From positions 310,001 through 374,000 of the forward strand of contig NZ_JOJL01000002.1 of NCBI RefSeq assembly GCF_000721705.1: a stretch of 64,000 bases of DNA, written 5' to 3'. Of the stretch, positions 28-20,259 are shown piece by piece (position 1 is the first letter of the stretch; the number at the start of each line of letters is the position of its first letter). Made by a program: the position numbers and the translations under genes. Under the pieces are notes generated by a model that was not told the origin of the DNA, did not search any database, and saw only the letters and a list, made by a program, of their open reading frames with translations. The DNA comes from Actinoplanes subtropicus. Lineage in GTDB: Bacteria > Actinomycetota > Actinomycetes > Mycobacteriales > Micromonosporaceae.

Positions 28-252
28 ATGGCCAAGAAAATCATCATCGGACAGTCGGAGTGGACCATCAAGGACGCCGATGCCGAGGCGGTCGTCAGCA
101 AGCTGCGGGACGCGCTGACCCAGCGGGCGACGGTCGAACTGCCGCTGGCCGACGCCGAGGGCCGGGCGGTGAGCGTGTTCGTCAACGGCGCCACGGTGCC
201 CAGCCTGGTGCTCGACCTGGACGAGGGCCCACGCCCCAGCGAGATGTCGTAG
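28..252 (+). CDS. Small conserved-looking hypothetical protein, 74 aa
   Basis: Unrecognised family. It reads as a compact alpha/beta protein. An N-terminal strand (KKIIIG) is followed by a helix rich in Asp, Ala and Leu, and then two hydrophobic strands (VELPLA and VSVFVNG) with a third near the end (SLVLDLD). It has no signal peptide or membrane segment. AAAGGTG lies about 6 bases before the ATG and supports the start. A strong hairpin follows the stop, so it ends a transcription unit that begins outside the window. It lies just upstream of the sigma-like and CHAT genes and could belong to that locus, but nothing in the sequence proves this. Confidence 0.7.
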   Translation: MAKKIIIGQSEWTIKDADAEAVVSKLRDALTQRATVELPLADAEGRAVSVFVNGATVPSLVLDLDEGPRPSEMS

Positions 253-393: not shown

Positions 394-1386
394 ATGGCCG
401 AGAACTCCTCGATCCGAAGCCTGGCCGAGGCCGGGCACCTCGCGCACCACTACCGGGCGGCGTCGCCGGCGGAACGGCGGGCGCTTCGCGCGGCCGCGGC
501 CGAGATCGCCGGCCGCATCGTCTTCCACCGGGTCACCCGGCCGATGGAGCACCGGCGGCGGCACCGGGCCTGCGCCTCGGGCGTGCGCCACCTGGAGCCC
601 GACTGCCTGGACCGCTACCACGACGACGTCGACGGCGTCCTCGACGACCTGTTCGCCCACGCCGACCGGCCGATCGCGAACCTCGAGGGCTGGATCACCG
701 CGCGGCTGCGCCGGTCCACCGTGGACGCCCATCGCCGTCGCCGCGGCGAACGTGGTGCGCAGCAACGCCCGCGGCCGCCGGCCTGGCTCATCGCCGAGCT
801 CGGCGGCGACCCGTGGCGGGTCGAGCTGGCCCGGGCGATCCTCGAGTGGGTCGGGGTCGAGGCGACGGCCGGCCGCTCGATCTGGCCGCTGACCGCCTGG
901 ACCGAGCGGCGGATCGCGGTCACCGGGGAGCACGACGCCGGCGAGGCCGCCGTGGCGGCCGAGGTGGAGGCTGTCCTGGCGACCATGCGCCGGCGCCGCG
1001 GCTGGTACGAGAAGAACGTGGAGCGGCCGCTCGGCCGCAAGGAGGCGGCGGTCTGGTTCCCGGCCGGTGCCGACGACGGCGAGCCGGAACCGCTGGCCCT
1101 GGTGCCGCCCTACGAGCGGGACGACGCCGAGCTGCGGGCGCTGGCGGCCCGGGCGATCGAGCTGATCGCGGCCCGGCTGGCCCGCGACGAGAAGGCGGCC
1201 GACGTGGTGCCCGAGGTGCTGGCCGCCGTGTTCGGGGAGTTGCCGGCGGCGCACGGGCTGGACCGGGTGCCGGGCGCCGACCGGGGCGGGCCGGAGGAGG
1301 TGGTCGCGCTCATCGCCGAGCCGGCCCGCCTGCGCCGCGTCATCGCGACGGTCGTCCGCCTCCTGGGCGGCCGTGCCGAGCCCTGA
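394..1386 (+). CDS. Sigma-70 region 2-like protein A of the caspase/CHAT locus
   Basis: A 330-aa soluble protein with no clear family name. Residues 71-127 resemble sigma-factor region 2: an acidic helix (CLDRYHDDVDGVL), a W-containing helix (LEGWITARLRR), then VDAHRRRRGERGAQQRPR. This follows the usual aWLyriarN...D..Rrrr pattern. Region 4 is not visible. Instead there is a second conserved block (EWVGV, SIWPLTAW, WYEKNVERPLG) and a helical C terminus. A paralogue at 9196-10311 shares all these blocks. No good ribosome binding site precedes the ATG, so the start is tentative. It may be a divergent sigma or anti-sigma-like adaptor for the locus; promoter recognition is inference only. Confidence 0.7.
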   Translation: MAENSSIRSLAEAGHLAHHYRAASPAERRALRAAAAEIAGRIVFHRVTRPMEHRRRHRACASGVRHLEPDCLDRYHDDVDGVLDDLFAHADRPIANLEGWITARLRRSTVDAHRRRRGERGAQQRPRPPAWLIAELGGDPWRVELARAILEWVGVEATAGRSIWPLTAWTERRIAVTGEHDAGEAAVAAEVEAVLATMRRRRGWYEKNVERPLGRKEAAVWFPAGADDGEPEPLALVPPYERDDAELRALAARAIELIAARLARDEKAADVVPEVLAAVFGELPAAHGLDRVPGADRGGPEEVVALIAEPARLRRVIATVVRLLGGRAEP

Positions 1387-1393
1387 TGCGTCC

Positions 1394-1927
1394 TCAGTTC
1401 GAGCCTTCGAAGATCTTCTTGTCGCCGAGGACCTTGTCCCCGCCGACCTTGTCGCCGTACACGAACTCGAGGTTGTCCACCCGGACCTCGAACTCCGCGG
1501 CCGGATTGTCGATCGCGTCGGTGACCTGCATGGTCAGCTCGTCGATCTGCGCCTTGTCCGTGCTCACCACGGCGGCCTCCTCGCTGCCGGCCATGGCGAC
1601 GCGCAGCACGTACACCCGGGGCAGCCGCAGCAGGCGGACGAGCCCGGCGAGGTGGAACACCAGGAGGCCGCCGACGATCGGCCAGAACACCACCCAGGCG
1701 GCGGTGGGCAGCGCCCGGCCGAGCTTGGCCATGGCGATCGCGCCGAGGACGGCGAACATGATGGTGGCGCCGGCGCGGCGGCCGAAGTCCACGAAGATCG
1801 GCAAGCGTTTCAGCCGCAGCTGGACCGGATGGATCCGGACCACGTGCGACAGCGGGTAGGCCTCCGATCCGACCCACAGGATCCGCCGACTGATCCGGAC
1901 CCGGACGGCCGTGCGCTTGACCTTCAT
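1394..1927 (-). CDS. DUF6232-like two-helix membrane protein with C-terminal GDK pentad repeats
   Basis: 177 aa. The N terminus (residues 1-45) is a small beta-rich module with the 'YPLSHVVRI' pattern of actinobacterial DUF6232 proteins. Two hydrophobic helices follow (about 48-64 and 68-86), then a cytoplasmic-looking tail. The last 20 residues contain three five-residue repeats (YGDKV, GGDKV, LGDKK). The same repeat opens the divergently transcribed CHAT protein at 2019. The ATG is preceded by an AGGGGGG-type site. The gene converges with the sigma-like gene, with only 7 bases between their stops. It may be a membrane anchor or sensor that docks the CHAT effector through the shared repeat, which is inference. 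Confidence 0.75.
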   Translation of the reverse strand: MKVKRTAVRVRISRRILWVGSEAYPLSHVVRIHPVQLRLKRLPIFVDFGRRAGATIMFAVLGAIAMAKLGRALPTAAWVVFWPIVGGLLVFHLAGLVRLLRLPRVYVLRVAMAGSEEAAVVSTDKAQIDELTMQVTDAIDNPAAEFEVRVDNLEFVYGDKVGGDKVLGDKKIFEGSN

Positions 1928-1969
1928 GACCCAGCCCCCCTCGGGACTCGACAGTGACCACCGTCGTGA

Positions 1970-2000
1970 TCTGACGGACAGGATCCCGCTGTCCGTCAGA
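1970..2000. promoter_or_regulatory. Perfect 12-bp inverted repeat upstream of the first CHAT operon
   Basis: The arms TCTGACGGACAG (1970-1981) and CTGTCCGTCAGA (1989-2000) are exact complements with a 7-bp spacer. They lie between the divergent DUF6232-like and CHAT genes, 19 bases before the CHAT start. A near match sits in the same position before the second CHAT operon (10624-10655), so this is probably a shared operator rather than a chance hairpin. Candidate binders are the Crp-type protein at 4847 or one of the sigma-like proteins. Confidence 0.65.
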
Positions 2001-2018
2001 CCCCTTCGGGAGGTGGCC

Positions 2019-2705
2019 ATGGGCGACATCGTGCACGGTGACAAGGTCAACGGCGACAAGATCAACGGCAACAAGATTGTGTACGCGGCGGGCCGGCCGA
2101 CGCCGCGAGCGGAGCCGAAGGTGATTCTCCTGATGAGCGCCGACGCCGACGGGCGGCGGCCCCTCGGCCTGGACCGGGAGCATCGCGAGGTCGACGCGGC
2201 GATCTGGAACGCGCACGCCGGCGGACGGCTGGAGGTGCGGGTGGCCGACGCGGTCCGGATGGCGGACCTGCAGCGGTCGTTGCTGCGGCACCACCCGGTG
2301 ATCGCGCACTTCAGCGGCCACGGATCGGCCGCCTACGGGATCATGGTGACCGACGCCGGCGGCCGCCCGCGCGCGGTACCGCCGGACGCCCTGAGCGACC
2401 TGTTCCGGGTGATGCGCGAAGATCTGCTGTGCGTCGTGCTCAACGCGTGCTTCACCGAGGAGCAGGCGCACGCTATCGCCGAGCACATTCCCTGCGTCAT
2501 CGGCATGCGCGGCGGCATCCTCGACGACGCCGCGATCAGCTTCGCCACCGCGTTCTACCAGGCCGTCGCCTACGGCCGGACCCTCGGCACGGCGTTCGAG
2601 CTCGGGTGCAATCAGCTGCTGCTCGACGGCCACCCCGACGCCGTCCGTCCGCGACTCGTCGCGACGCCGGGCGCCGCGCATCTTCGCGTGCTCGAGCGTT
2701 CCTGA
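2019..2705 (+). CDS. CHAT-domain (caspase-fold) protein with N-terminal GDK repeats
   Basis: 228 aa. Residues 1-22 are four pentads (GDIVH, GDKVN, GDKIN, GNKIV). The rest is a minimal CHAT domain with the catalytic His in 'IAHFSGHGS' (His101) and Cys in 'VVLNACF' (Cys144), so it looks catalytically competent. There is no TPR region, unlike most CHAT proteins. The start is the ATG after GGGAGG at 2008-2013; an upstream ATG at 1911 would run through the palindrome. The stop overlaps the start of the next CHAT gene by one base (TGATG), so the two are co-translated. It is probably an effector protease recruited by the GDK motif; its substrate is unknown. Confidence 0.85.
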   Translation: MGDIVHGDKVNGDKINGNKIVYAAGRPTPRAEPKVILLMSADADGRRPLGLDREHREVDAAIWNAHAGGRLEVRVADAVRMADLQRSLLRHHPVIAHFSGHGSAAYGIMVTDAGGRPRAVPPDALSDLFRVMREDLLCVVLNACFTEEQAHAIAEHIPCVIGMRGGILDDAAISFATAFYQAVAYGRTLGTAFELGCNQLLLDGHPDAVRPRLVATPGAAHLRVLERS

Positions 2706-4843
2706 TGGCGGCGCCCCGGAGTCTGGCGGCGGAACTCGTCGCGAGGAACGCCCGGTGGGCCGCGCTCGCGGTGGCCTCGGCCGGCGCCGGGGAGTCGCTG
2801 ACCGCGGCACTGCGGACGCCGGGCGATCCCCTGTCGTTCGCGCGGGCCGCGGTGGCCACCCTGGAACTGGACTGGGTCGCCGAGGAACTGCCCGACCCGG
2901 ACTGCTCGGCGCTGGCCGCGACGCATCTGCGGGACTGCCACCGGGCCGCCGCGGTGCTCCCCGTCGCCGCGTACGAGCATGAGGTGATCCGGGTCGCGGC
3001 GGAGGACGTCGAGGCCGCCCACCGCCGGATCGCCGCGTCGACCTTGCGATACCGGGCCGTCCGGGCCGAGAACGCGGGCCGGCCGGACGAGGGCCGGCGG
3101 CTGCGGGAGCAGGCGTTGTCGCGGGCGCCGGCCGGGTCGTACCTTCGAGCGGTCCTGCTGATCGAGCTGGGCCGCCTGGGTGAGGCAGGCGCGGCGATCG
3201 ACGAGACGACGGGCCTGGACCCGGTGGTCCTGGCCGAGCTGAACGTCCGCGCCGGGCGGCCCGCCGTGGCCCGGACGATCCTCGCCCACTCCGGCGGGGC
3301 ACCGCGCCAGCAGCCATGGGGGGACCTCGGGCGCCGAGCGGAGATCGCCTTGATGCTGGGCGATCTCGAGGAGGCCGATGGGCTGGCCGCTCGGGCGGTG
3401 GAAGCATTCGAGCGGAGCCTGGCTGCGGCGGGTTGCGGCTACTACCGCGCCCTGGCCGGCGATCACGTGGCGGTGGCCGGGATGTACAACGTCGCCGCGC
3501 GGGCCCGGCTCGAGCTCGGCGACGCCGGCGGCGCGTTCGGCCTGGTCGACCGGCTGCGGGCGGAGATCGTCCGGGCGGCCCCGGACCGCGAGGCGCGGCG
3601 GGCCGAGGCCCACCTCGGCGCCGTTCATGAGGGGCTGGCCGCCGCCGCGCTGCGTGGCGACCGGCCGGCGTACGCCGACGTGGTCGCGGCGGTCGAGGCA
3701 GCCGAGGAGGCGGCCGGCCGGGCCGCCACCGGGCCGCCGGCCGCGGCCGGCCTGGACGAGGTGCGCCGCGCGCTGCCCGCGAACGCCGCCCTGCTGTACT
3801 ACCAGTCGTTCGACCTGGATCTGATCATCTGGGCGGTCCGCCGCGACGGGATCGTGGTCGAGCGGCGCGAACGGCTGCGCCGGGATCTGATCCGGTCGGT
3901 GCGCGAACTGCACTCGGCGTGTTCCGGCCTGGGCGGCGACGGCGCCCGGGTGCCCGGCCTCGCCGCCCGCGTGGCGGCCGACCTGATCGAGCCGGTCGCC
4001 GCCGCGCTGACCGGGGTGGACCGTCTCTTCGTGGCGCCGCCGGGCGCCCTGATGCTGCTGCCGTTCGCCGTCCTCCCGTTCGGCGGCTCGACCCTGGCCG
4101 AGCGGTTCACCGTGTCCGTCCTGCCGTCGGCCGCGCTGCTGACCCGCCCCGGCGCGGGCCGGCCGCCCGACCTGGACGGCCCGGCGCTGCTGGTCGGCGA
4201 TCCCGACTACGCCGCCCTGCCCCGGCTGCCCGGCACCGGGGTCGAGGTGCGGGCGATCGCCGCCCGGCTGCGCTCCGCCGTCGCGCTGACCGGCCCGGAC
4301 GCGACGGCCGAGGCGTTCGCGCGGCACGCGCCCGGCCGGTCCGTCGTGCACCTGGCCACGCACGGCGAGGTGGACGAGATCCGGCCGTACCTGAGCTCGC
4401 TGGCGCTGTCCGGCGGTGCCCGGCTCACGATGCCGGACCTGGCCGGGCTCGACCTCGGCATCGACCTGCTCGTGCTGTCGGCCTGCCACACCGGCCGCGG
4501 CCGGGCCACCGCCGGCGGCGACGTGCTGGGCCTGGCCCGAGCCGCCGTCGCGGCCGGCGTCCGGCACCTGATCGTCTCGCTCTGGCCGGTCGACGACGTC
4601 GCGGCCTGCCTGCTGATGACCACGTTCTACCGGCGGCTGGCCCGGGGCCACGGCGTCGCCGCGGCGCTGGCCTGTGCCGCGCGCCGGGTCCGCGCGATGG
4701 ACGCGGGCGAGCGGGCGGCGGCGTACGCCCGGCTGGCCGGCGCACCCGGCAGCGGGAAGGCGCGTGACGTCGGCGCGGTCGAGCGGAGTGGCCCGGGAGA
4801 CGGGCCCGCGTACTGGGCACCCTTCATCCACATCGGAGTTTGA
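2705..4843 (+). CDS. TPR-CHAT caspase-like protease
   Basis: 712 aa. Residues 1 to about 350 are helical repeats of the TPR type. Residues about 370-712 form a CHAT domain with the 'VVHLATHGE' His (553) and 'LVLSACHTGRG' Cys (594), both of the expected dyad, followed by the typical 'VSLWPVDD' segment and a C-terminal 'YWAPFIHIG'. CHAT proteases of this plan are known in bacteria as TPR-coupled caspase relatives that cleave specific partners. It is the second gene of a three-gene operon. The start overlaps the preceding stop, and the Crp-type gene follows after 3 bases. Confidence 0.92.
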   Translation: MAAPRSLAAELVARNARWAALAVASAGAGESLTAALRTPGDPLSFARAAVATLELDWVAEELPDPDCSALAATHLRDCHRAAAVLPVAAYEHEVIRVAAEDVEAAHRRIAASTLRYRAVRAENAGRPDEGRRLREQALSRAPAGSYLRAVLLIELGRLGEAGAAIDETTGLDPVVLAELNVRAGRPAVARTILAHSGGAPRQQPWGDLGRRAEIALMLGDLEEADGLAARAVEAFERSLAAAGCGYYRALAGDHVAVAGMYNVAARARLELGDAGGAFGLVDRLRAEIVRAAPDREARRAEAHLGAVHEGLAAAALRGDRPAYADVVAAVEAAEEAAGRAATGPPAAAGLDEVRRALPANAALLYYQSFDLDLIIWAVRRDGIVVERRERLRRDLIRSVRELHSACSGLGGDGARVPGLAARVAADLIEPVAAALTGVDRLFVAPPGALMLLPFAVLPFGGSTLAERFTVSVLPSAALLTRPGAGRPPDLDGPALLVGDPDYAALPRLPGTGVEVRAIAARLRSAVALTGPDATAEAFARHAPGRSVVHLATHGEVDEIRPYLSSLALSGGARLTMPDLAGLDLGIDLLVLSACHTGRGRATAGGDVLGLARAAVAAGVRHLIVSLWPVDDVAACLLMTTFYRRLARGHGVAAALACAARRVRAMDAGERAAAYARLAGAPGSGKARDVGAVERSGPGDGPAYWAPFIHIGV

Positions 4844-4846
4844 AGA

Positions 4847-5542
4847 ATGACCGAAGCCGACCCGGTGTGGGCGCCCGGATCGTTCCTCTCGCTGATCACT
4901 GCCGAGGAGCGCGAACAACTCCTGGCCCTCGGCACCACGCGGCGCCTCCCACCCGGCCGGCAGCTGCTGGTCGAGGGCCGGCTCGACGCCCACGTCGAGA
5001 TCATCCGCCAGGGGCACGTCAAGGTCTCCACGTCGGTCGCCGGCCTGCCGCGGCTGCTGGCGATCCGGTTGCCCGGCGACCTGGTCGGCGAGCTGGCCGC
5101 GGTCACCGGCGGCGGGCGCAGCGCCACCGTCACCACCTGCGGCGAGGTGGTGTCGACGGTGATCCAGCGGCCGGACTTCATGGGCTTCCTCGCCCGGCAC
5201 CCGAACGTGGCGGCACAGGTCACGGCGACCGTCGGGCGGCGGCTGCGCTGGGCCAACGAGCGCCGCTCGGAGTTCTCGGCCTTCCCGGTGCACGTGCGGC
5301 TGGCGCGGGTGCTCAGCGAGATCGCGGCCAGCTGCGGCGAGGCGGTCGACGACGGGCTGCTGATCGGTGTCGAGCTCAGCCAGACCGAGCTGGCCACGCT
5401 GGTCGGCGCGCGCGAGGACACCGTCCAGCGCGGACTGCGGATGCTGCGCCAGGACGGCCTCCTGCGTACCGGGTATCGCCAGATCGTGATCCTGGACGAG
5501 CCGGGCCTGCGCGCGGTCGCCGACCGGGCCGAGTGGCAATGA
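4847..5542 (+). CDS. Crp/Fnr-family transcriptional regulator
   Basis: 231 aa. The cNMP-binding domain spans residues about 10-125. Its phosphate-binding cassette 'GELAAVTGGGRSATV' retains the Glu (82), Arg (91) and Ser (92) that contact cyclic nucleotides in E. coli CRP. A linker helix follows, then a winged helix (about 150-220) with 'LSQTELATLVGAREDTVQRGL'. It has no Fnr-type cysteine cluster. It is the last gene of the CHAT operon, and GGAG lies inside the end of the TPR-CHAT gene. A cyclase-like gene sits 2 kb away in the opposite operon, so cAMP or cGMP control of this locus is plausible. The operator it binds is not known. Confidence 0.92.
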   Translation: MTEADPVWAPGSFLSLITAEEREQLLALGTTRRLPPGRQLLVEGRLDAHVEIIRQGHVKVSTSVAGLPRLLAIRLPGDLVGELAAVTGGGRSATVTTCGEVVSTVIQRPDFMGFLARHPNVAAQVTATVGRRLRWANERRSEFSAFPVHVRLARVLSEIAASCGEAVDDGLLIGVELSQTELATLVGAREDTVQRGLRMLRQDGLLRTGYRQIVILDEPGLRAVADRAEWQ

Positions 5543-5546
5543 CCGA

Positions 5547-7469
5547 TCAGTCCGGCACCTCGGTGACCAGGGTGAGCGACTCGACGGTCCAGTCGTAGGC
5601 GCCGCGGTCCGTCTCGGCCTCGCCGAGATCGCGCAGCACCACGCCGTTGCCGATCCGCTCCAGCAGGCCGCGGGAGGTCAGGGCGCTCCGCTCGCGGGAC
5701 AACCGGCCGCCCAGCTGCGGCAGCAGGAACGGCTCGGCGCTGAACTGCTGCTCGGCCACCAGCAGCAGGAGCCGGTCGCGGGCGCGGGCACCGGGCTCCG
5801 GTGCCATGCCGTCCGGCAGGTACGCCTGGACGCGCCGGCCCGCCAGCACGGCCGCCGGGCTCCGGGGCGCGATGAAGTCGCCGGGGAACAGCGCGGCGTG
5901 CACCCGGAATCGCGGCGTCAGGTCGAGCAGGACGCAGAAGAGCTCGCGGTCCGAGGTGTTGTGCAGCCGGAGGAACACCTCGGGCGGGCGCCGGCCGGAG
6001 CCGTCCCGGAGGTAGCTCAGGGTGAGCTCGCCGCCGGTGGGTTCGAGCACCGATCCGCCCGTCCGCGGCGCGAGCGCCAGATCGGCGGGTGCCTCGAGCA
6101 CCTCGATACGGACCGCCCCGGCCAGCTCGGATCGCGGGTTGACCAGCGTGGACAGCAGGGTCCACCGGGCGATGTGCTCCAGCGCCCCGACCGCCTCCTC
6201 GGCCCGCACCTCGCACCGGCGCCGGCCGCGGTCGTCGTCGATGCCGACCATCCCGGACGGGTCGACGTCGGCCCGCAGGTCGGCCGGCGATCCCGGCTCG
6301 ACGTCGCGGACATGGGGGGAGGGACGGCCGCCCGGTGCCGCGGTGTGCAGGTCCAGCAGCAGCCGCCGGACCGCCGCCGGGTCGCGACCGGTCACCGACA
6401 CGGTGAGACGCGGCAGCGGTACCTGGGTCACCACCATCGGGTACTGCCGGTCGCGGGCCGGCGCCCAGCCGTCGTCCGGCCGCACCAGACTGCGGTGGGT
6501 CTGCACGGTGGTCACGGTCGCCTGCTGCGACGGCGAGCCCCCGCGTACGCCGACCTGCAGGCCCTCGCCCGCGGGCAGCCCGTGCACCGCGCCGGCGTCG
6601 ATCTCCCAGTCGCCGCGCAGGTAGCGCATCCGCATCGCCGCGCCGTGCACGCCGGGCCGCGGCGACAGGAACGCGTGATCGGCCAGCGGCGAGGCGGCCG
6701 GGCGAAGCTGCGGCGTCTGGTCCCGCACCCGCTGCTCCACCTCGGTCCGGGCCGCCGCGGCCAGCTCACGGTAGGTGGCGAGCGGGCTCAGTTGCTCGAG
6801 GGCGCGCAGCAGCGACCAGCTGAAGACGCCGCGGTCCCGGCCGCCGATCTCGATTTCGCGGGCACGTTCGGTCGAGCGGCAGGCGGCCAGCGCGATGTGC
6901 TCGGGCCGGTCGGCCGCCGCGGCGGCGTGGATCAGCTCGGGGACGAGCGACGCGCGGATGCGGGGCGCGGCCTCGGGCACGTTGCGGAACGACGTCCGGC
7001 CGGTCGGGATCTCGCGGGTGGCGCCGTCGGAGTGACAGCTGTCGAGCACGACGGCCACGTGGGCGGCGTGCCGGCCCACGTCGTCGAGCAGCACCGACAG
7101 CTCCTTGTCCCACAGGTCCGGCACCTCGCCGGTCCGGCTGTCCGCACACACCAGCGTCTGCAGCCGCCGGGTCGGCTCGGCGAACCACGCCCAGTCCGGG
7201 CACGCCGCGTCGGAGCCGTGCCCGCTGAACCAGAACAGCACCGCGTCCGCCGGCGTGGCCCGCCCCAGATGCGTACGGATGGCCTCGACCACCGCCGCCC
7301 GGGAGGCCTCGCCGTCGCGCAGGACCTTGATGCGGGGCCGCGACTCCGCATCCGGACGGGTCAGGTAGGCCTCGACGGCCTCGACGTCGTTGACGCAGCC
7401 GCGCAGGTTCGGCACGTCCGGATCGGCGTACTCGTTGATGCCGACCAGCAGGGCGTACAACGTGGTCAT
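5547..7469 (-). CDS. Metacaspase-like C14 peptidase with C-terminal DUF4384-like region
   Basis: 640 aa. It opens directly with the caspase fold: 'TLYALLVGINEYADP', the catalytic His in 'LFWFSGHGSDA' (84) and Cys in 'VVLDSCHSDGA' (145). Both dyad residues are present. The C-terminal half is beta-rich and contains a stretch like DUF4384 ('VFLRLHNTSDRELFCVLLDL ... LFPGDF'), which often accompanies bacterial caspases. The start is set by an ATGA overlap with the cyclase gene (7466-7469); a longer frame to 7706 would lie inside that gene. It converges with the Crp gene at a 4-base gap. It is a likely death effector of the locus. Confidence 0.9.
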   Translation of the reverse strand: MTTLYALLVGINEYADPDVPNLRGCVNDVEAVEAYLTRPDAESRPRIKVLRDGEASRAAVVEAIRTHLGRATPADAVLFWFSGHGSDAACPDWAWFAEPTRRLQTLVCADSRTGEVPDLWDKELSVLLDDVGRHAAHVAVVLDSCHSDGATREIPTGRTSFRNVPEAAPRIRASLVPELIHAAAAADRPEHIALAACRSTERAREIEIGGRDRGVFSWSLLRALEQLSPLATYRELAAAARTEVEQRVRDQTPQLRPAASPLADHAFLSPRPGVHGAAMRMRYLRGDWEIDAGAVHGLPAGEGLQVGVRGGSPSQQATVTTVQTHRSLVRPDDGWAPARDRQYPMVVTQVPLPRLTVSVTGRDPAAVRRLLLDLHTAAPGGRPSPHVRDVEPGSPADLRADVDPSGMVGIDDDRGRRRCEVRAEEAVGALEHIARWTLLSTLVNPRSELAGAVRIEVLEAPADLALAPRTGGSVLEPTGGELTLSYLRDGSGRRPPEVFLRLHNTSDRELFCVLLDLTPRFRVHAALFPGDFIAPRSPAAVLAGRRVQAYLPDGMAPEPGARARDRLLLLVAEQQFSAEPFLLPQLGGRLSRERSALTSRGLLERIGNGVVLRDLGEAETDRGAYDWTVESLTLVTEVPD

Positions 7470-8719
7470 CGAGCGGCTCCGACGGTCAGCCAGCCGTGCT
7501 CGACGAAGTCCTTCTCCGGCAGTTCCACGGTCATCGGCCGGAAGTCGGACGCCAGCGGCGGCTCCACGGCATGGGCGATCACGTCCTGATACAGCACGTC
7601 GGGCAGTCCCAGCACGTACGGTGCCTCGGGGTTCTCCTTGATCGCGGCGCGCAGCGGCGGGCTGTCCAGGAGACGGTGAACGGCGATGGCCGCCGCGCCG
7701 ACCCACCCGTTGGCCGTCTCCTTGACCAGTCCCCGGTGCAACGCGACCCGCAGCCGCATCCGCTCGGCGGCCGCGCGACCGCGGTCACGATCCAGCAGTG
7801 CGGCCCGGAGGGTGGCGATCATCGTCGGGATCACCGCCGCCTCGTCGATGCCGACCGGAAGAACGGTGAACTGGCCGTCGCCCTGCGGCTGCGGCCGGAC
7901 GGCGGACTCGGCGATGCCGGCCGCCCGCCGCGCTTCGGACAGGACCCGGACCAGGTCGCGCTGGAGCTCCTCGGTCTCGGCATTCCGGCGCCGGCTGTAG
8001 CCGACCACGTCGGCGGCCAGGCACATCCGGACGGCCGCGCCGCTCGGCACGGCGGCCTCGGTGAACGGCTCGCGGAACTCGACGGCCGGGGTCATCAGGG
8101 TCCGGTCGGCCGTCTCGGCCTGGACGGTGAGGACGCCGGCGAGATCGGTTGCGCCGCTCGGCATCTCCACCAGGGCATGCATGCCGTACGTGCGGGGGAG
8201 CAGGACGGTGCCCCGGGGATCGTCGTAGACCCAGCCGAAGCTTCCGGACTGCAGGCCGGTCGTCCAGGCGCGTGGCGTACCGGCCCGCCGGCCCAGGCGC
8301 CGCAGCAGGCCGGGGCGAGAGCGGGTGGCGGACACCGTACGCAGCGCCGCGGCCGACGCCGCCTCGCCCTGGACCAGCCCGAACTCGTCGCCGTCGGCGG
8401 CCAGCTGGACGACCCGGGCGCCCGGATCGGCCAGCGTCACATCGAGCCGGGCACCGGTGTACCGCTCCCCGGTCGGCAGCACGTCGAGATCGAACGCGAA
8501 GATGACCCCGGCGTACCGGTCGGCGCTCCGCTCGGCGCGGCGCCGCAGCAACGGCGGCAGATCCTCGGCCGGCACCGGATAGGCGAGCGGGCGCCCGCAG
8601 CGGACCAGGCCCGCGTACCCGGCGGCCGGCCCGGGCGCGCCGCGGCCGTCCGGCGACTCCAGCCCGCGGACGGCCAGCACCTCCTCGCCGGACAGTCCTT
8701 CGTCGAGAATCATCGTCAC
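7466..8719 (-). CDS. Class III nucleotidyl-cyclase-like protein
   Basis: 417 aa. Residues 1-225 are an unrecognised N-terminal region. Residues about 228-415 match the adenylate/guanylate cyclase homology domain. The first metal Asp is in 'AADVVGYS' (237) and the second in 'QGDGQF' (281), followed by 'LRVALHRG' and the transition-state Arg in 'VHRLLD' (349). The usual Asn four residues before that Arg is Ile345, and the Lys before the second Asp motif is missing, so activity may be weak, altered or lost. It is co-translated with the caspase gene by a 4-base overlap. GTG at 8719 and ATG at 8713 are both possible starts; the GGGGAG spacing favours 8713. Confidence 0.82.
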   Translation of the reverse strand: MTMILDEGLSGEEVLAVRGLESPDGRGAPGPAAGYAGLVRCGRPLAYPVPAEDLPPLLRRRAERSADRYAGVIFAFDLDVLPTGERYTGARLDVTLADPGARVVQLAADGDEFGLVQGEAASAAALRTVSATRSRPGLLRRLGRRAGTPRAWTTGLQSGSFGWVYDDPRGTVLLPRTYGMHALVEMPSGATDLAGVLTVQAETADRTLMTPAVEFREPFTEAAVPSGAAVRMCLAADVVGYSRRRNAETEELQRDLVRVLSEARRAAGIAESAVRPQPQGDGQFTVLPVGIDEAAVIPTMIATLRAALLDRDRGRAAAERMRLRVALHRGLVKETANGWVGAAAIAVHRLLDSPPLRAAIKENPEAPYVLGLPDVLYQDVIAHAVEPPLASDFRPMTVELPEKDFVEHGWLTVGAAR

Positions 8720-9195
8720 TCACTCTCCCCACTGGACGAGCACGCCCAGGCCTCGGTCCGTGCGCCGGTCTCTGACGGACGGCGATGGCGAGTGTCGGAA
8801 AGACGACCGGGGCCGGCGAGACTTGATCTCGCCTTCGCTGGTATGGCCGAGCGGGAAACGGGTGATGATCGCGACCTCGCGCGACCGCGTGGTGACGACC
8901 CGTCGACCCCCACGGAGCGTGACGTCGACTCCGCCGAATGACGGAAAGTCACCCTCCGAAGTCATCCAGGATGGCGGTGGGTTCGCGGGAAATACGCCTC
9001 CGGAACACGGAACGGGTTAACCCGAGAGGGTTGGCACGGTCCCCCGCCCGGGCGCCGCGGCACCCCTGTCCGTCACTCCTTCGCCAGCGGACAGCCATTC
9101 CTTGCCCCGGGGCATGGCGACCGAAGGCACTCCGATCTGACACTCGACGGGCGACGTTTCTCCCTGCTTACAAGCAACTATCGAGGACGGCAACG
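8720..9195. promoter_or_regulatory. Divergent promoter region between the cyclase-caspase operon and sigma-like protein B
   Basis: 476 bases without a convincing gene. TCTGACGGAC at 8771-8780 matches the left arm of the CHAT-operon repeat, with a degenerate right arm near 8794. CTGTCCG (9066-9072) and CGGACAG (9088-9094) form the same half-sites in the opposite arrangement. A 12-bp palindrome CGGGTTAACCCG lies at 9013-9024. These are likely operators for both directions; no clear -10/-35 pair could be fixed. Confidence 0.45.
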
Positions 9196-10311
9196 GTGAG
9201 CAGTGCGGATGAGGCCGCGACGGCTTCCGGCAACATGTACCGGCCCGGCGGCGACGCCGGGCCGGCCCTTCCGCTCATCCCCAACCAGCGTCGCATCTAC
9301 GCGCGGCCGCGCCCGGCCGTGCCGGACGACCTGTCCTGGCTGCGTGACCTGGCCAAACGCGGCGAGTTGAGCCGGGCCGTCGAGGCCGGCCACGGCCCGC
9401 GGCTGTGCCGGGCGGCCTTCGCGGTGAGCCACCAGATCGTCTTCGACGTGGTCACCCGCCGGTTCGAGTTGACGGCGCGCGGGCATTCCCGGTGCGCCCG
9501 CGGCATCCCGTTCATGGACGGCCCCTGCCTCGACCGCTACTACGACGACGTCGAATCCGTGATCGACTACCTGCTGGCCGCCCGGCAGCCGATCGACGAC
9601 CTCGAGGCGTGGCTGGCCCGCCGGGCCCGCAACGCGACCGTGGACGGTCATCGCCGCCGGCGCGGGGAGCGGGGCGCGCTGCAGCGACCCCGGATGACCC
9701 GCGCGCTGGCCGCCGACCTCGGCGAGGACCCGTGGCTCGGCGAGCTCGCCCTGAAGATCTTGGAGTGGGTCGGCGTGCCGACCGGGGCCGGGGCAAGCCT
9801 GTGGCCGCTGGACCGCTGGGCGCAGTTGCGGGCCGAACGCACCCGCGACATCGCCGGCAGCACACCCGCCCGGGTGGCCGCCGAGGTCGAGCGGGTGCTG
9901 GCCGCGATGCGGCGCCGGCCCCCGTGGTACCAGGACTACGTGGAGCGGCCGCTCGGCCACAAGGTGGCGCCGGTCGCTCCGCCGCCCGGCGACGAGGTCA
10001 CCGACCCGCGTCCGCTGGTCGTGGTCAGCCCGGAGGAGATCGTCGACGCGCGGCTCAGCGATCTGGCCGAGGTCGCCGTCGAGGCCATCCGGACCGGCAT
10101 CGAGCACCACCACGATCCCACCGTGACCGTGGTCGACGTGTTGACGCGGTTGTTCCTCGGCGGCACCGGGTCGGACGAGCTCGAGCTGGCCACGCCGGCC
10201 GGCGTCGACGGCCGCCACCAGCACCTGTCAGCGATGCTGGCCGACCCCGTCGCCCTCGCCGGCGTCGTGGACCGCGTGCTCGGGATCGTTCGCGGCGAAC
10301 CGCTGCGCTAA
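9196..10311 (+). CDS. Sigma-70 region 2-like protein B, paralogue of protein A
   Basis: 371 aa, unrecognised family. Residues 111-166 repeat the sigma-region-2-like block of the 394-1386 protein (CLDRYYDDVESV, LEAWLARRARN, VDGHRRRRGERGALQRPR). 'LEAWLARRARNATVD' is the more sigma-like version of the two. The later blocks EWVGV, SLWPLDRW and WYQDYVERPLGHK are also shared. An extra 40-residue N-terminal extension is rich in Gly, Pro and Ala. The GTG start is chosen because GAGGACGG lies 6-13 bases upstream; ATG at 9235 is an alternative. Its 3' end overlaps a small gene on the other strand. It stands alone between the cyclase operon and the second CHAT operon. Confidence 0.72.
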   Translation: MSSADEAATASGNMYRPGGDAGPALPLIPNQRRIYARPRPAVPDDLSWLRDLAKRGELSRAVEAGHGPRLCRAAFAVSHQIVFDVVTRRFELTARGHSRCARGIPFMDGPCLDRYYDDVESVIDYLLAARQPIDDLEAWLARRARNATVDGHRRRRGERGALQRPRMTRALAADLGEDPWLGELALKILEWVGVPTGAGASLWPLDRWAQLRAERTRDIAGSTPARVAAEVERVLAAMRRRPPWYQDYVERPLGHKVAPVAPPPGDEVTDPRPLVVVSPEEIVDARLSDLAEVAVEAIRTGIEHHHDPTVTVVDVLTRLFLGGTGSDELELATPAGVDGRHQHLSAMLADPVALAGVVDRVLGIVRGEPLR

Positions 10312-10458
10312 CACCTCCAGCGCCCGGCGGCGGCCGGCGATCGCCTCCTGCACGGCCGCGGGGGACTCGCCGCGATCGAGCGCGTCGCCGTACGCCTTCC
10401 GGAGCTCCTCCTCGAGGACCTGGCGGATCTGCTCGAGCTGCGCCCGGGTGAGCTCCAT
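10228..10458 (-). CDS. Small helical protein overlapping the end of sigma-like gene B
   Basis: 76 aa, not recognised. It is almost entirely predicted helix, with 'LTRAQLEQIRQVLEEELRKAY' charged heptads suggesting a short coiled coil. Third-position GC bias in the part outside the neighbouring gene (10312-10458) fits this strand. The last 84 bases overlap the sigma-like gene tail-to-tail. There is no clear ribosome binding site, and an in-frame ATG at 10524 also lacks one. It may be real, and if so it could be an antisense-encoded partner of the locus. I am only moderately sure it is expressed. Confidence 0.4.
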   Translation of the reverse strand: MELTRAQLEQIRQVLEEELRKAYGDALDRGESPAAVQEAIAGRRRALEVLAQRFAANDPEHAVHDAGEGDGVGQHR

Positions 10459-10623
10459 CAGAGCGGTCGCTCGAGATCGGCGGTACGCGGGCAGGCACGG
10501 ATCACCCACCGATTGTGAACCCATGAGAGGTATTCACGCCGCCCCCACGTGGCCGGATTTGGCGGGACGAGTGTCTCGATGTTCATGTCGGTCCCTTCGG
10601 CTGTGACGGCTCGCTGTCCAGGC

Positions 10624-10655
10624 TCTGGCGGACGGGCGCGGGCCGGTCCGTCAGA
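10624..10655. promoter_or_regulatory. Imperfect inverted repeat upstream of the second CHAT operon
   Basis: The arms TCTGGCGGACGG (10624-10635) and CGGTCCGTCAGA (10644-10655) pair at 10 of 12 positions. The outer parts match the perfect repeat at 1970-2000 (TCTGrCGGAC ... GTCCGTCAGA), with 12 rather than 11 bases between the GGAC and GTCC cores. It ends 36 bases before the GTG of the CHAT gene at 10692. This indicates common control of the two CHAT operons. Confidence 0.6.
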
Positions 10656-10691
10656 AATGGGCGACGGACACGGCGGAATGGGGCGGCAAAA

Positions 10692-13361
10692 GTGGACGAT
10701 CTACTCGAACGATACGCGACGATCGCCGGGGTCCTGGCCGGGTACACCACTCTCGAGGAGGGCATCCGAGCCGTACGGGAGCTGCCGCCCGCCGCCCCCA
10801 AGCGCGGCCTCCTCGCCGCGGCGCTGGTGGAACGCACGATCCAGGAGGCCTTCCGGGCGCCGGAACGCCATCGGCGGTCGATCGATTGGCTGGTGGCCAT
10901 CGCCGACACCGGGCCGCCGCCGGGCCCGGCGTGGCGCCGGCTGCGGATCGTGGCCCGTAGCGCGGCCATCATGATGGCCGCGTTCCACCAGGACCTGGGC
11001 GATCCGGCGGCCGTGGTGGCCGAGTTGGAGACGCTGCGCGGACACAGCGGCGACGATCCGGCGCTTCTCAACCAGCTCGACCTGACCCGCATGACGGTCG
11101 AGGCCGCGCTGTCCGGCGGGTCCACCGACCTCGAGGCGGTCGACCGGGTCGTGGACCGGTTCCGGAAGATGACCGCGCAGGGCGGGGCGCCGAATCCGGA
11201 AGCGGAGGCGCTGGCCGAGGCCATGATGCTGATGCAGGAGATGATGCGCGCGCCGACGGCACCCGGCATGCAGGAGCGGCAGGCCCGGCTGATGGAGATC
11301 CTGGGACGGCTTCCCGAGGAACACCACCTGCGGAAAGCGGTCGAGGAACGGCTCCCGCTCCTGCGCCTGTACACGGCGGACGCGGATCCCGGCGACGCGC
11401 TGGCCGCGATCGACCGGCCGGGCGTCAGCGCGGACGATCGTGCGATCGGCCTGTCCACGCTCAGCCTGTACGCGATGCTGAACGAGAACGACCCGGCCCG
11501 CATCGACGCGTGGATCGACCGGTTGCGGACCACCCTGGCCGACCTGGGCCCCGGCCATCAGCGTCGCGGCCTGCTTCTGGTCATCCTGGCCGGCGCCCTG
11601 GCCCGCCGGGACGAGATGGACAATCGCGTCGACCGGCTGGACGAGGCCGAGGCGCTGGCCCTCGAGGCGCGCGGGTTGGTCGAGGGGCGCCCGCACGACA
11701 AGGTCTGGTCGATGGCGCACGACATCCTGGCGTTCATCGACCAGCGCCGGCCGGCCGGCCCGGACCGGCACCGCACCGCGCTGGACGGCATGCGCGGGCA
11801 CCTCTGGCGGGTGCTGATGCAGCGTGACCTGGCCGGTGCCGCCGCCGTGGCCCGGGACGCGGCCGAGACGGCCCTCGTCAACGCGCGGGACTGCCTGGCC
11901 CACGGCGATCCGGCGGCGGCGGTACGCGCGCTGGAGGCGGGCCGAGGCCTGGCGCTGTACGCCGCCGTCGAGATGCGCGACGTCGCCGAGCGGCTGAGCG
12001 CCCTGGGCCACGACCGCCTGGCCGAACGCTGGCGGCGCGAGGCGATGACGGCCGATCCCGACGACGTGCCGGTCGGGCTGCGCCGCGAGGTCGTCGAGGC
12101 GCTGGCCGCGGCGGCGCCGGCCGGCGCCCTGCTCGACCCGCCCGAGCCGGCCGAGATCGCCGAGGCGCTGACCGAACTGGACGCCGACGCGCTGATCTAC
12201 CTGATTCCGGGCAACGGCCCGGTGACCGGCTTCGGCCTGGCCGTTGCCGCCGACGGATCGATGACCTACTTCGCCCTGCCCAACCTCCGGCTGGCCGGCG
12301 ACGACCCGGTGGTCGCGGCGTTGTCGTCGCTGGCCCGGCGCGACGCCACGCTCCACCGCGGCGACGTTGCCCGGGACCTCGGCGCGGCCGAGGCCGAAAC
12401 GCGGGACCTGGCCGCCGGCGTGGCGACGCTGTGCGACTGGGCGTGGCGGGCCGCCATCGGCAAGGTGATCGAGCAATACCTGCCCGGCCTGGGCGTGGCC
12501 ACCGGGCGTACGCCTCACCTGGTGTTGATCCCGCTCGGCGAACTGGCCCGGGTCCCCTGGTCGGCGGCGCGCCGGGCGGGCGGCGAGCCGGCCGTTCACC
12601 ACGTCGCGATCTCCCAGGCGGCGTCGGCCCGGCTGCTGTGCCACACCGCGGGCCGGCCGCCGGTCCGCCCGTCGCGCAACGGCCTGGTGGTCGGCGATCC
12701 GGCGACGCCCTGGACGGCCCTGCCGGGCGCCCGGCTCGAGGCGTACGAGATCCACCAGACCTTCTACCGCGGCAGCCGCTACCTGGGGCGCCGGCCCCAG
12801 GACGACGACGTCAGCCCGTCCGGGGCCGGCACCCCGGCCGAGGTGACGAAGTGGCTCACCGATCCCGGACTCGCCGGCGGCGGACTGCTCCACCTGGCCT
12901 GCCACGCCGTGGCCGACACCGAACGCGGGCGGTCCTACCTCCTGCTCGACGGCGGCCAGGAACTGGCCGCCGACCGGCTGGTCGACCTGCTCGCCGGACG
13001 CCCGGACCGGGAACTCGGCCTCGTCGTGCTGGCCGGCTGCAACACCGGCAAGGCGATCACCGGGTACGACGAGGCGTACAGCCTGGGTACGGCGTTCCTC
13101 GCCGCCGGCGCGCGATCGGTGCTGTCCACGCAATGGTCGATCCCGGACGGCAGCACCTCGGTGCTGATGTTCATGGTCCACCAGTTCCTGATGGTCGACC
13201 GCCGGACGCCGTGGGAGGCCCTGCGCGACGCCCAGCTCTGGATGCTCGACCCGGATCGCGAGATTCCCGACCGGATGCCCGCCGAGCTGCGGAAACGACT
13301 GAACGAGTCGGACCCGACCGACATCACGGGGTGGGCGGGCTTCGTCCACTGGGGACGTTAG
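10692..13361 (+). CDS. Large helical-repeat CHAT caspase-like protease
   Basis: 889 aa. Residues 1 to about 450 are helical repeats of TPR type. Residues about 500-889 form a CHAT domain with His in 'LLHLACHAVAD' (738), Cys in 'VVLAGCNTGKA' (783), then 'VLSTQWSIPD' and a terminal 'WAGFVHWG', all typical of the family. The dyad is intact. The GTG start follows a GGGGCGG stretch and the conserved inverted repeat. It is followed after 8 bases by a helical protein gene with its own GGAGAG site, so the two form an operon. It differs in length and sequence from the TPR-CHAT at 2705 and is not a recent duplicate. Confidence 0.9.
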   Translation: MDDLLERYATIAGVLAGYTTLEEGIRAVRELPPAAPKRGLLAAALVERTIQEAFRAPERHRRSIDWLVAIADTGPPPGPAWRRLRIVARSAAIMMAAFHQDLGDPAAVVAELETLRGHSGDDPALLNQLDLTRMTVEAALSGGSTDLEAVDRVVDRFRKMTAQGGAPNPEAEALAEAMMLMQEMMRAPTAPGMQERQARLMEILGRLPEEHHLRKAVEERLPLLRLYTADADPGDALAAIDRPGVSADDRAIGLSTLSLYAMLNENDPARIDAWIDRLRTTLADLGPGHQRRGLLLVILAGALARRDEMDNRVDRLDEAEALALEARGLVEGRPHDKVWSMAHDILAFIDQRRPAGPDRHRTALDGMRGHLWRVLMQRDLAGAAAVARDAAETALVNARDCLAHGDPAAAVRALEAGRGLALYAAVEMRDVAERLSALGHDRLAERWRREAMTADPDDVPVGLRREVVEALAAAAPAGALLDPPEPAEIAEALTELDADALIYLIPGNGPVTGFGLAVAADGSMTYFALPNLRLAGDDPVVAALSSLARRDATLHRGDVARDLGAAEAETRDLAAGVATLCDWAWRAAIGKVIEQYLPGLGVATGRTPHLVLIPLGELARVPWSAARRAGGEPAVHHVAISQAASARLLCHTAGRPPVRPSRNGLVVGDPATPWTALPGARLEAYEIHQTFYRGSRYLGRRPQDDDVSPSGAGTPAEVTKWLTDPGLAGGGLLHLACHAVADTERGRSYLLLDGGQELAADRLVDLLAGRPDRELGLVVLAGCNTGKAITGYDEAYSLGTAFLAAGARSVLSTQWSIPDGSTSVLMFMVHQFLMVDRRTPWEALRDAQLWMLDPDREIPDRMPAELRKRLNESDPTDITGWAGFVHWGR

Positions 13362-13369
13362 GAGAGATC

Positions 13370-14617
13370 ATGTCCAGCGATCGAGTGGATCAGCTCCGCG
13401 CCAAGCTCGCCGATCTGCGGGGACCGTCCCGGGTGGGGCCGCTGATGGAGCTCACGCAGGAGCTCGTCAACCGGCACTGGCAGATCGGGCCTGGCCGGCC
13501 CGAGGGGCTGCCGCTGCTGAACGAGGCGATCGGTACGGCGGAGGAGGCGTACGGATACTTCGACGCCAAGGATCCCTGGCGCCGGCAGATGGCCGCCCAG
13601 CTAGGGACCCTGATCGGCGCGCGGCACCTGGCCCACGGCAGCCCGGAGGCCGACCGGGTACGCGCGATCGCGCTGCTCGAGGACGGCCTCGGCATGCCGC
13701 AGCTCCCGCCGGCCGTGCAGATCATGTGCCGGCTGACCCTCGGCCAGCTCTGCCTGATCACGTCGACCCGGGCGCTGAGCGGCGTCAACCTGGCCTCGAT
13801 GACCGCGGGCACGGCCCTGCCGGCCACCGCCGAGGCCGACGTCGACCGGGCGATCCGCTGCTTCCGCGAGGTGCTCGACGGCCCGGCGGTGTCCGCCGAG
13901 GGCCGGCACGCGGCCGAGTCGCTGCTGACGATGGCGGACGCCCTCCGCACCATCGTGGTGGCCCTGCGCGGCGGGCCGTCGATGCAGACCATCAACAAGC
14001 TCATGGACGCGGTCAAGGTCTTCCAGCGGTTCCACGAGGAGCAGTCGGCGCGGGCCGGCCGCGGCTTCGGCACCGGCGTGCTCTCCCTGTACGACGCCGA
14101 GCGTCTCGCCGGCGCGGATCCGCTGGACCGCCCGGTGATGATGATGGACGTCAAACCGGCGCCGCCGAAACCGAGGCCGAAGCCGGTGCCGATGCCGCCC
14201 GCCGACGATCGCGTCGAGGCGATGCGCAGCCGCCTCCGTGACCTGGTCGCCCACGGCTTCGACCTGTTCGCCGCGATCGAGCGGCTGCTCGCGCCCGGGG
14301 CCGCCCGCCCGCCGGTCGACGAGGTCGACGAGGTCGTCGCGCTGGCCACCGCCGTGGTCGACAGCGGCCGGGCCGACCGTACGGACAACCTGCTCTACGC
14401 CCTGGGCCTGCTGTTGCGGGCCCGGACGGCGGGGTCGCCGGCCAACCGCCCGGACGTCGACGACGCCGCCGACCATCTGCTGCGCGCGGCCGGATCGAGC
14501 AGCCCCGCCCCGCCCGACGTCCTCCGGATCATGCACAACCTGGCCGCGGCGCTCGACCGGCTCCAACCGGGAGCCGAGGTGACCGACCGGCTCACCGCCA
14601 CCCTGGCCGGCGTCTAG
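13370..14617 (+). CDS. Helical-repeat partner protein of the second CHAT protease
   Basis: 415 aa, no catalytic motif recognised. Residues 1-230 are helical with Ala/Leu-rich repeats similar in style to the N-terminal half of the CHAT protein. A Lys/Pro linker (KPAPPKPRPKPVPMPP) follows at about residue 263, then a second helical region. Such arrangement suggests a scaffold, regulator or protease substrate with a flexible hinge. It is co-transcribed with the CHAT gene (8-base gap, strong GGAGAG). The 3' end overlaps the convergent methyltransferase gene by 4 bases. Being a cleavage target of the neighbouring CHAT protease is a reasonable guess, as CHAT substrates are often encoded next door. 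Confidence 0.8.
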   Translation: MSSDRVDQLRAKLADLRGPSRVGPLMELTQELVNRHWQIGPGRPEGLPLLNEAIGTAEEAYGYFDAKDPWRRQMAAQLGTLIGARHLAHGSPEADRVRAIALLEDGLGMPQLPPAVQIMCRLTLGQLCLITSTRALSGVNLASMTAGTALPATAEADVDRAIRCFREVLDGPAVSAEGRHAAESLLTMADALRTIVVALRGGPSMQTINKLMDAVKVFQRFHEEQSARAGRGFGTGVLSLYDAERLAGADPLDRPVMMMDVKPAPPKPRPKPVPMPPADDRVEAMRSRLRDLVAHGFDLFAAIERLLAPGAARPPVDEVDEVVALATAVVDSGRADRTDNLLYALGLLLRARTAGSPANRPDVDDAADHLLRAAGSSSPAPPDVLRIMHNLAAALDRLQPGAEVTDRLTATLAGV

Positions 14618-19971: not shown

Positions 19972-20259
19972 TCATATTGAGGAGACCGCTTCCTGGTGGA
20001 GGCGGGACAGGACGGCCAGGCGCACCTTGTGCGGGGCCGGGCGGATGTACCGGCCGCCGACGTCGTCCTGGTAGGCGATGACCAGCAGGCCGTAGTCGGT
20101 GTGCGCGCCGATGCCCCGCGCGGTCTGCCGCGACTCGGCGGGGAAGCGCAGCACCCGCATGTGGTGCCGGACCGTGGCAGGGCCACCCCTGCCGTACGCG
20201 GGGGTCGTCCAGCCGCACGTCACGGCTTCCGGCATCGAGAACGCCCGCAACTCCACCAT
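19972..20259 (-). pseudogene. Remnant of an isopenicillin-N-synthase-fold 2OG oxygenase
   Basis: Only about 95 codons remain. They include the iron-binding motif 'GIGAHTDYGLLVIAYQDDVGG', but this jumps straight to 'RYIRPAPHKVRL', which matches the second-His region. About 40-60 residues normally between them and most of the N and C termini are absent. A good ribosome binding site (AAGGAGACGCG) still precedes the ATG. The frame stops 7 bases before the Rieske gene start. The Rieske gene may now use this old leader. Confidence 0.7.

What the first reader, a model, noticed from the sequence alone, without database searches (positions are those of the whole stretch)
394..14617. Caspase/CHAT protease island that also encodes a cyclase-like protein and a cNMP-binding regulator
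Four caspase-fold proteins with intact His/Cys dyads, a class III cyclase-like protein, a Crp-type regulator with intact cNMP contacts, two sigma-like proteins, a membrane protein and a helical partner are packed in 14 kb with overlapping starts and stops. CHAT and caspase proteins are known members of predicted bacterial conflict or cell-death systems. The combination with a cyclase, a Crp switch and sigma-like proteins is one I do not know as a described unit. Model (inference): stress leads to cNMP, which acts through the Crp regulator on CHAT operon expression, while the caspase is made together with its cyclase.
Basis: partly seen in the sequence, partly recalled or inferred. Interest (0 to 1): 0.92.

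Follow-up and report, generated by a model that had tools for sequence, protein, structure and literature searches.

The report
Co-regulated caspase protease island
A soil actinomycete carries a cluster of caspase-like protease modules that share one short DNA element, whose presence across genomes tracks a family of unstudied sigma-factor-like proteins, and one protease carries a repeat tag that matches a tag on its membrane neighbour.

Summary
The gene set is real and conserved. All four caspase-fold proteins keep their His/Cys dyads, the cyclase models as a class III fold, and the 'helical partner' belongs to a pseudo-CHAT family. In 200 genomes of the family these genes co-locate far above chance; the unit begins upstream of the window (LuxR-type ATPase, fifth caspase-fold protein).

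(1) The 8-mer GTCCGTCA precedes the operons: all five window copies lie in island gaps. It ranks first among intergenic 8-mers in 45 loci carrying the sigma-like protein (SIG) and third in 24 such loci outside the family. Its start-codon-spaced form is about 3-fold commoner in SIG+ than SIG- genomes; the reversed control is flat. No -35 signal was found. (2) The short CHAT protein begins, and the membrane protein DUF6232 ends, with the same pentapeptide-like repeat; the tags co-vary over 13 pairs (p about 5e-6).

Best reading: a stress/defence regulon of protease modules, probably switched through SIG at a -10-only promoter, one protease being docked at the membrane by matched tags. SIG-DNA recognition, cyclase activity and defence are inferred. 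Crp control of CHAT operons is not shown.

The parts
28..252 (+). SMALL, 74-aa protein; last gene of the operon LuxR-type ATPase > caspase > SMALL that starts upstream of the window
   Evidence: no Pfam hit; c8-c5-SMALL contiguous in 9 fetched loci besides the own genome
394..1386 (+). SIG-A, sigma-domain-2-like protein
   Evidence: alignment; weak Sigma70_r2; structure
1394..1927 (-). DUF6232 two-TM membrane protein ending in a GDK repeat tag
   Evidence: PF19744 E 1.6e-16; hydropathy
1418..1456 (-). C-terminal GDK-x-x-GDK tag of DUF6232
1971..1999 (.). two facing copies of the shared element (CTGACGGACAG-N7-CTGTCCGTCAG) between DUF6232 and CHAT
   Evidence: PF12770 E 1.8e-6; dyad H101/C144; relatives' starts
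2705..4843 (+). CHAT2 protease
   Evidence: PF12770 E 3.4e-59; H553/C594
4847..5542 (+). Crp-type regulator
   Evidence: cNMP_binding and HTH_Crp_2; co-location
5547..7469 (-). caspase (Peptidase_C14)
   Evidence: PF00656 E 1.8e-15; PADLOC caspase 1.2e-28; H84/C145
7466..8713 (-). class III cyclase-like protein with its own N-terminal domain
   Evidence: with caspase within 5 kb in 11 of 17 places
8772..8782 (-). shared element upstream of the cyclase-caspase operon
9066..9076 (+). shared element (one mismatch in the 11-mer) upstream of SIG-B
9235..10311 (+). SIG-B, paralogue of SIG-A
10644..10654 (+). shared element upstream of CHAT3
10692..13361 (+). CHAT3 protease
   Evidence: PF12770 E 2.2e-46; H738/C783
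13385..14617 (+). HEL, partner of CHAT3; short member of a family whose longer members end in a degenerate CHAT domain

Best explanation
The region is one block of a larger island of caspase-fold conflict modules that share a promoter-like element. Modules: (i) LuxR-type ATPase > caspase > SMALL (> SIG), and SIG > CHAT3 > pseudo-CHAT partner; (ii) cyclase > caspase, beside a Crp regulator; (iii) a two-TM DUF6232 protein and a short CHAT protease that carry the same repeat tag at C- and N-terminus. Shown: the genes, their co-conservation, the element C[CT]GTCCGTCAG in front of the modules, the tracking of the element with SIG across genomes, and the partner-matched tags. Inferred: SIG is a sigma-like factor that reads the element as a -10-only promoter (in Micromonosporaceae often 17 nt before the start codon, which would give leaderless transcripts) and so switches the modules on together; the ATPase regulator and the cyclase-Crp pair feed stress signals in; DUF6232 holds its CHAT protease at the membrane through tag-tag assembly; proteolysis then arrests or kills the cell, plausibly as a defence.
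For: Co-location in 200 genomes. Colinear core in four loci of three other genera and parts in two more. All five window copies of the 8-mer lie in island gaps. 53 loci: 91 intergenic hits in 117 kb, 41 coding hits in 965 kb; 60 shuffled 8-mers mean 3.5, maximum 13 intergenic. Unbiased ranking: first of 5607 and third of 2478 intergenic 8-mers. Start-spaced form 3.97 per 10 Mb in 44 SIG+ and 1.34 in 154 SIG- genomes, reversed control 1.44 and 1.58; excess persists without the ATPase or the close Crp, and the rate rises with SIG copies, rho 0.50. No -35 column. SIG residues 1-123 align to sigma domain 2. Tag pairing: best of 120 orders for 5 pairs; 0 of 200,000 permutations for 13 pairs.
Against: No experiment. 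SIG's sigma likeness is weak. The start-codon spacing of 17 nt fails outside Micromonosporaceae (2 of 41 sites). SIG+ genomes with the ATPase have about twice the element rate of those without (5.37 against 2.70 per 10 Mb). Facing copies of the element, as at 1971-1999, also fit an operator. In 24 non-family SIG loci 17 hold no caspase/CHAT protein by these profiles. Eight of the 13 tag pairs were paired by equal contig length only.
Confidence: 0.55

Rival explanations
1. The element is an operator for an ordinary DNA-binding regulator (the LuxR-type ATPase or an unlinked dimeric regulator), and SIG merely travels in the same islands.
For: Facing copies of the element at 1971-1999 and in other loci (listing); higher element rate in genomes with the ATPase; sigma likeness weak.
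Against: Excess in SIG+ genomes lacking the ATPase (59 seen, 29.3 expected); rate rises with SIG copies; the element is enriched in Amycolatopsis SIG loci, whose 20-kb stretches show no ATPase relative.
Confidence: 0.3
2. A defence-island-like hotspot: unrelated modules gather and share a promoter by recombination, without acting together.
For: Cassettes swap within a conserved frame: in Actinoplanes sp. KI2 a 602-aa gene stands in the DUF6232-CHAT position and no caspase lies between Crp and cyclase; GAP1/HSP70/GTPase genes sit next door.
Against: A common element in front of the modules that tracks SIG argues for common control; matched tags argue for physical coupling of one pair.
Confidence: 0.15
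3. One reading: the cyclase makes a cNMP that acts through the Crp regulator on the CHAT operons.
For: Cyclase and Crp co-locate in and outside the island; cyclase metal-ligand-like D235 and D279 invariant in 26 sequences.
Against: No excess of E. coli-type Crp boxes; the element enrichment does not need the close Crp. An unknown Crp site is not excluded.
Confidence: 0.1

Closest known systems
Caspase, EACC1 and GAP1-N2/DO-GTPase conflict systems (Kaur et al. 2020, PMC7159879; passages seen)
   Same: Caspase domains, cNMP cyclases, HSP70/GTPase genes, actinobacteria; GAP1-N2, GAP1-M, GAP1-C and HSP70 genes found beside the cyclase-Crp-SIG genes in L074
   Different: In the held main text of that paper the words CHAT, sigma factor, promoter and regulon have no occurrence; no shared element or SIG is described in the passages seen
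Bacterial amyloid signalling motifs, BASS (review PMC7889193, passages)
   Same: A short motif repeated in proteins of adjacent genes, at the N-terminus of one and the C-terminus of the other; the review mentions CHAT among less frequent carriers
Pycsar (cyclase plus cNMP-binding effector; recalled)
   Same: A cyclase gene near a cNMP-binding protein; the Crp protein's cNMP domain matches PADLOC PycTIR, E 6.1e-13
   Different: The cNMP-binding protein is a transcription factor (HTH_Crp_2); the cyclase has no PADLOC hit
TPR-CHAT/Csx29 of type III-E CRISPR (recalled; abstract start seen)
   Same: A CHAT protease domain at the C-terminus of a long protein; CHAT3 matches NCBIfam Csx29 only at 13.8 bits (cut-off 300)
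   Different: No CRISPR family hit among the ten proteins scanned other than this sub-threshold match

Membership tests
EACC1-caspase system | caspase of the EACC1-associated type | tested here: not met
   NF047832 at 52.8 bits, cut-off 140
EACC1-caspase system | adjacent gene with the EACC1 domain | tested here: inconclusive
   no EACC1 hit among the 20 window proteins scanned with Pfam; presence of the model in the library was not checked
CHAT protease | CHAT domain with His/Cys dyad | tested here: met
   Pfam over cut-off in three proteins, dyads present
Class III nucleotide cyclase | fold | tested here: met
   3mr7 and other class III cyclases, E 7.8e-7 and weaker
Class III nucleotide cyclase | catalytic residues and activity | tested here: inconclusive
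   D235, D279, R347, K401 invariant in 26 sequences; the usual transition-state Asn seems replaced (residue roles recalled); activity not testable
Sigma-70 family factor | domain 2 | tested here: inconclusive
Sigma-70 family factor | transcription from a cognate promoter | not testable with these tools
   only statistical link to the element
Pycsar | cNMP-binding effector with TIR or TM domain | tested here: not met
   cNMP_binding plus HTH_Crp_2 only
BASS-type amyloid signalling pair | same short motif on proteins of neighbouring genes, opposite termini | tested here: met
BASS-type amyloid signalling pair | NLR receptor in the pair | tested here: not met
   partners are DUF6232 and CHAT
BASS-type amyloid signalling pair | amyloid formation | not testable with these tools
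   -

The most novel reading that the evidence does not exclude
SIG proteins are a new class of sigma-like factor without a -35-reading domain. They recognise a -10-only promoter (CTGTCCGTCAG, in Micromonosporaceae often 17 nt before the start codon) and fire, as one regulon, caspase, CHAT/pseudo-CHAT, cyclase and HSP70/GTPase modules, including a CHAT protease docked to a membrane protein by a co-evolving repeat tag: a transcriptionally gated proteolytic death programme in bacteria.
Probability: 0.4. Interest if true: 0.93.

Novelty: new variant of a known kind. Interest (0 to 1): 0.8.

Why it matters
Bacterial caspase and CHAT modules are mostly described one at a time, and how they are switched on is largely open (my judgement). 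A shared element tied to one protein family makes this testable: it predicts members of the regulon in other genomes, names a candidate switch and suggests a simple in vitro experiment. The matched tags offer a clean case of partner-specific docking between a protease and a membrane protein, comparable in principle with inflammasome-type homotypic assembly.

Tried and rejected
Crp boxes: one E. coli-type site at 2 mismatches, 9.2 expected; dropped.

Caspase-DUF6232 fusion in G098 (L071 13363-15255): the codon score changes frame at about residues 400-490, so the ORF is probably made of disrupted or separate genes; not used as evidence.

-35 search: 64 sites with the 17-nt start show no column above 0.16 bit from -45 to -3; the commonest upstream pentamers belong to the facing copy of the element (these 64 include sites in loci fetched for that spacing).

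The first spacing histogram included loci L165-L184, which had been fetched because of that spacing. Recomputed without them: ATG/GTG at offset 17 in 24 of 107 sites of the discovery loci (other offsets mean 3.8, maximum 13) and 30 of 157 of the named loci (mean 5.9, maximum 18), but 2 of 41 outside Micromonosporaceae.

SIG structure: Foldseek had no match at E <= 0.001. VIA-align rows cover residues 1-123; no claim is made about the rest.

PADLOC: no family for SIG-A, SIG-B, DUF6232, cyclase, CHAT3 beyond E 0.074, or HEL; caspase, short CHAT, CHAT2 and the Crp's cNMP domain do match defence models.

Literature searches listed no paper that I recognised as describing this gene set, DUF6232 or the element; most subscription papers are not held, among them Dyrka 2020 and Burroughs and Aravind 2020, so the GDK tag may be a published BASS motif.

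Full report
What is there. The window is G000:C2:310001-374000 of an 11.26-Mb genome. G174, placed in the same genus, has a contig of the length of an Actinoplanes regularis record (550385), so the host is inferred to be an Actinoplanes or close kin (Micromonosporaceae). Codon-usage gene calls give from the left: SMALL, SIG-A, DUF6232 (minus), short CHAT, CHAT2, Crp, caspase (minus), cyclase (minus), SIG-B, CHAT3, HEL. The genome has 9 CHAT places, three of them in the island.

The unit is larger than reported. Upstream of the window (L089) lie a 950-aa AAA_16/TPR/LuxR regulator (LAL in the notes, c8) and an 838-aa caspase (c5). The run c8-c5-SMALL is contiguous in 9 fetched loci; SIG follows directly in 3 of them, after one gene in 4, the stretch ends inside a SIG-like frame in 1 (L078), and in 1 (L106) SIG is not on that side. 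Further upstream are a CHAT protein and genes that cluster with the HSP70, FN3-type and DO-GTPase-type genes of a GAP1 system (the DO-GTPase2 and fn3 scores are below cut-off), the class described by Kaur et al. 2020 (PMC7159879, passages). In L074 such a system with GAP1-N2, -M, -C and HSP70 over cut-off lies beside cyclase, Crp and SIG.

Conservation. The same 200 genomes were searched with five proteins. From the listed rows, window included: full-length cyclase has the caspase within 5 kb in 11 of 17 places (0.02 expected); of the 11 best Crp hits, 7 have that cyclase, 8 SIG and 5 the caspase within 5 kb; HEL has SIG within 20 kb in 20 of 32 (0.22 expected). The other 101 Crp relatives are rarely within 5 kb of SIG (2) or caspase (0) but 52 are within 5 kb of a cyclase-domain relative (0.2 expected). 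So a cyclase-Crp pair is widespread, and one branch of it sits in these islands. Outside the family, Lentzea (L236, L249), Saccharothrix (L247) and Actinocrispum (L245) carry one colinear run kinase - x - AAA - x - x - radical SAM - SIG - CHAT3 - HEL - LuxR ATPase - caspase, followed by SMALL except in L245, which ends there; Actinophytocola and Kribbella carry SIG, CHAT3, HEL, ATPase, caspase and SMALL in other order; two Kutzneria loci and one Lentzea locus carry SIG - x - cyclase - Crp, with one more gene before Crp in L246. Against this, 17 of 24 SIG loci outside the family hold no caspase/CHAT protein by these profiles, most of them Amycolatopsis, and 19 of 45 inside hold none within about 10 kb. 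In Actinoplanes sp. KI2 (L185) most of the frame is kept (SIG-A 89%, CHAT2 80%, Crp 92%, cyclase 84%, SIG-B 83% identity), with a 602-aa gene in the DUF6232-CHAT position, an extra SIG before Crp and no caspase between Crp and cyclase.

Pseudo-CHAT partner. A profile made from five CHAT3 C-termini finds a CHAT-like region in 11 of 14 HEL family members; in the alignment the catalytic His is gone in 11 of 11 (two by deletion) and the Cys in 10 of 11, read by eye. The window copy, L071 6106 and L106 lack the region. So CHAT3 and HEL look like an active protease with a pseudo-protease partner; the partnership is inferred from adjacency.

The shared element. TGACGGAC occurs five times in the window, no more than chance (4.0 expected), but all five lie in the small gaps of the island: 1972, 1991, 8773, 9068, 10646. 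The gap of 1972/1991 is non-coding if the CHAT gene starts at 2019. In 53 loci (window, L070-L117, L131-L134), fetched for cyclase, SIG or tag hits or as their neighbours, there are 91 intergenic hits in 117 kb and 41 coding hits in 965 kb; 60 shuffled versions average 3.5 intergenic hits, maximum 13 (there the two sites at 1972 and 1991 counted as coding). Sites precede cyclase, CHAT3, caspases, the HSP70/GTPase operon, SIG and others; the consensus is C[CT]GTCCGTCAGA. In a ranking of intergenic 8-mers seen at least six times in SIG loci of named genomes, GTCCGTCA is first of 5607 in 45 Micromonosporaceae loci (106 seen, 3.9 expected) and third of 2478 in 24 other loci (33 seen, 2.0 expected; 19 coding). 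The 45 overlap the discovery genomes; of the 24, 13 are Amycolatopsis with 14 of the 33 sites.

Matched tags. 25 of 26 DUF6232 relatives have at least two GD/GN units 4-11 residues apart in the last 45 residues (P0024 is truncated; P0027 is a GDQI variant). Of 83 relatives of the short CHAT, 47 have such units in the first 70 residues: 46 of the 48 best and 1 of the other 35; the same test gives 2 of 83 on residues 71-140 and 4 of 120 SIG homologues. A DNA pattern for GDK-xx-GDK hit 13 sites in 6 of 200 genomes, reversed control 3 sites; G164's hit is a transporter-like protein, and G059's are a small peptide and another large protein. In five genomes the two genes are adjacent or one gene apart: window, G125, G024, G170, G158. 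The true pairing of tags is the best of 120 in five pairs; with eight pairs added that were inferred from equal contig lengths, none of 200,000 permutations reached it; the own partner is the single best match for 7 of 13 and in the top three for 9. Some pairs are closely related, so they are not independent. Concerted change in two unrelated proteins argues for direct tag-tag contact.

Cyclase. The model (pLDDT 88.4, pTM 0.58) matches class III cyclases. D235, D279, R347 and K401 are invariant in 26 sequences; from memory the first two correspond to metal ligands and R347 to a transition-state residue, with the usual Asn replaced. The product is unknown.

Judgement. The step from element to SIG, the activity of the cyclase, and a role in defence or cell death are inferences with stated tests.

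Noticed in passing
L034, L036, L038, L039 (cyclase-domain proteins of genomes with a Crp relative near by): These proteins end in another repeat, of the form TGDIxVxGQNAIGPxAxAIGS, perhaps a second tag type.
   Followed up: no
L131 4650-4865, L171 5331-5546, L173 7450-7665: A 71-72 aa protein gene with a hydrophobic stretch follows DUF6232 in three genomes but not in the window.
   Followed up: no
window 394-1386 and 9235-10311 (SIG family): R55, H57, C60, C71 and D73 (SIG-A numbering) are invariant in 34 SIG sequences, a possible metal or redox site.
   Followed up: no
L170 3945-6989, L178, L180, L181, L093, L106: Another CHAT protein is paired divergently with a 119-135 aa protein (c75), with the shared element between them.
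   Followed up: partly
L134 37-2519 (G059): A short frame with GDK repeats precedes a 799-aa protein with the same repeat: the tag may join other partners too.
   Followed up: no
window 21114-22115: ECF-type sigma factor with a C-terminal SnoaL-like domain, unrelated to SIG as far as tested.
   Followed up: no
window 19972-20259: A 95-aa piece resembling a 2OG-Fe(II) oxygenase, below the Pfam cut-off, perhaps a gene remnant.
   Followed up: no
window 41108-41977: A 289-aa WD40-like repeat protein.
   Followed up: no
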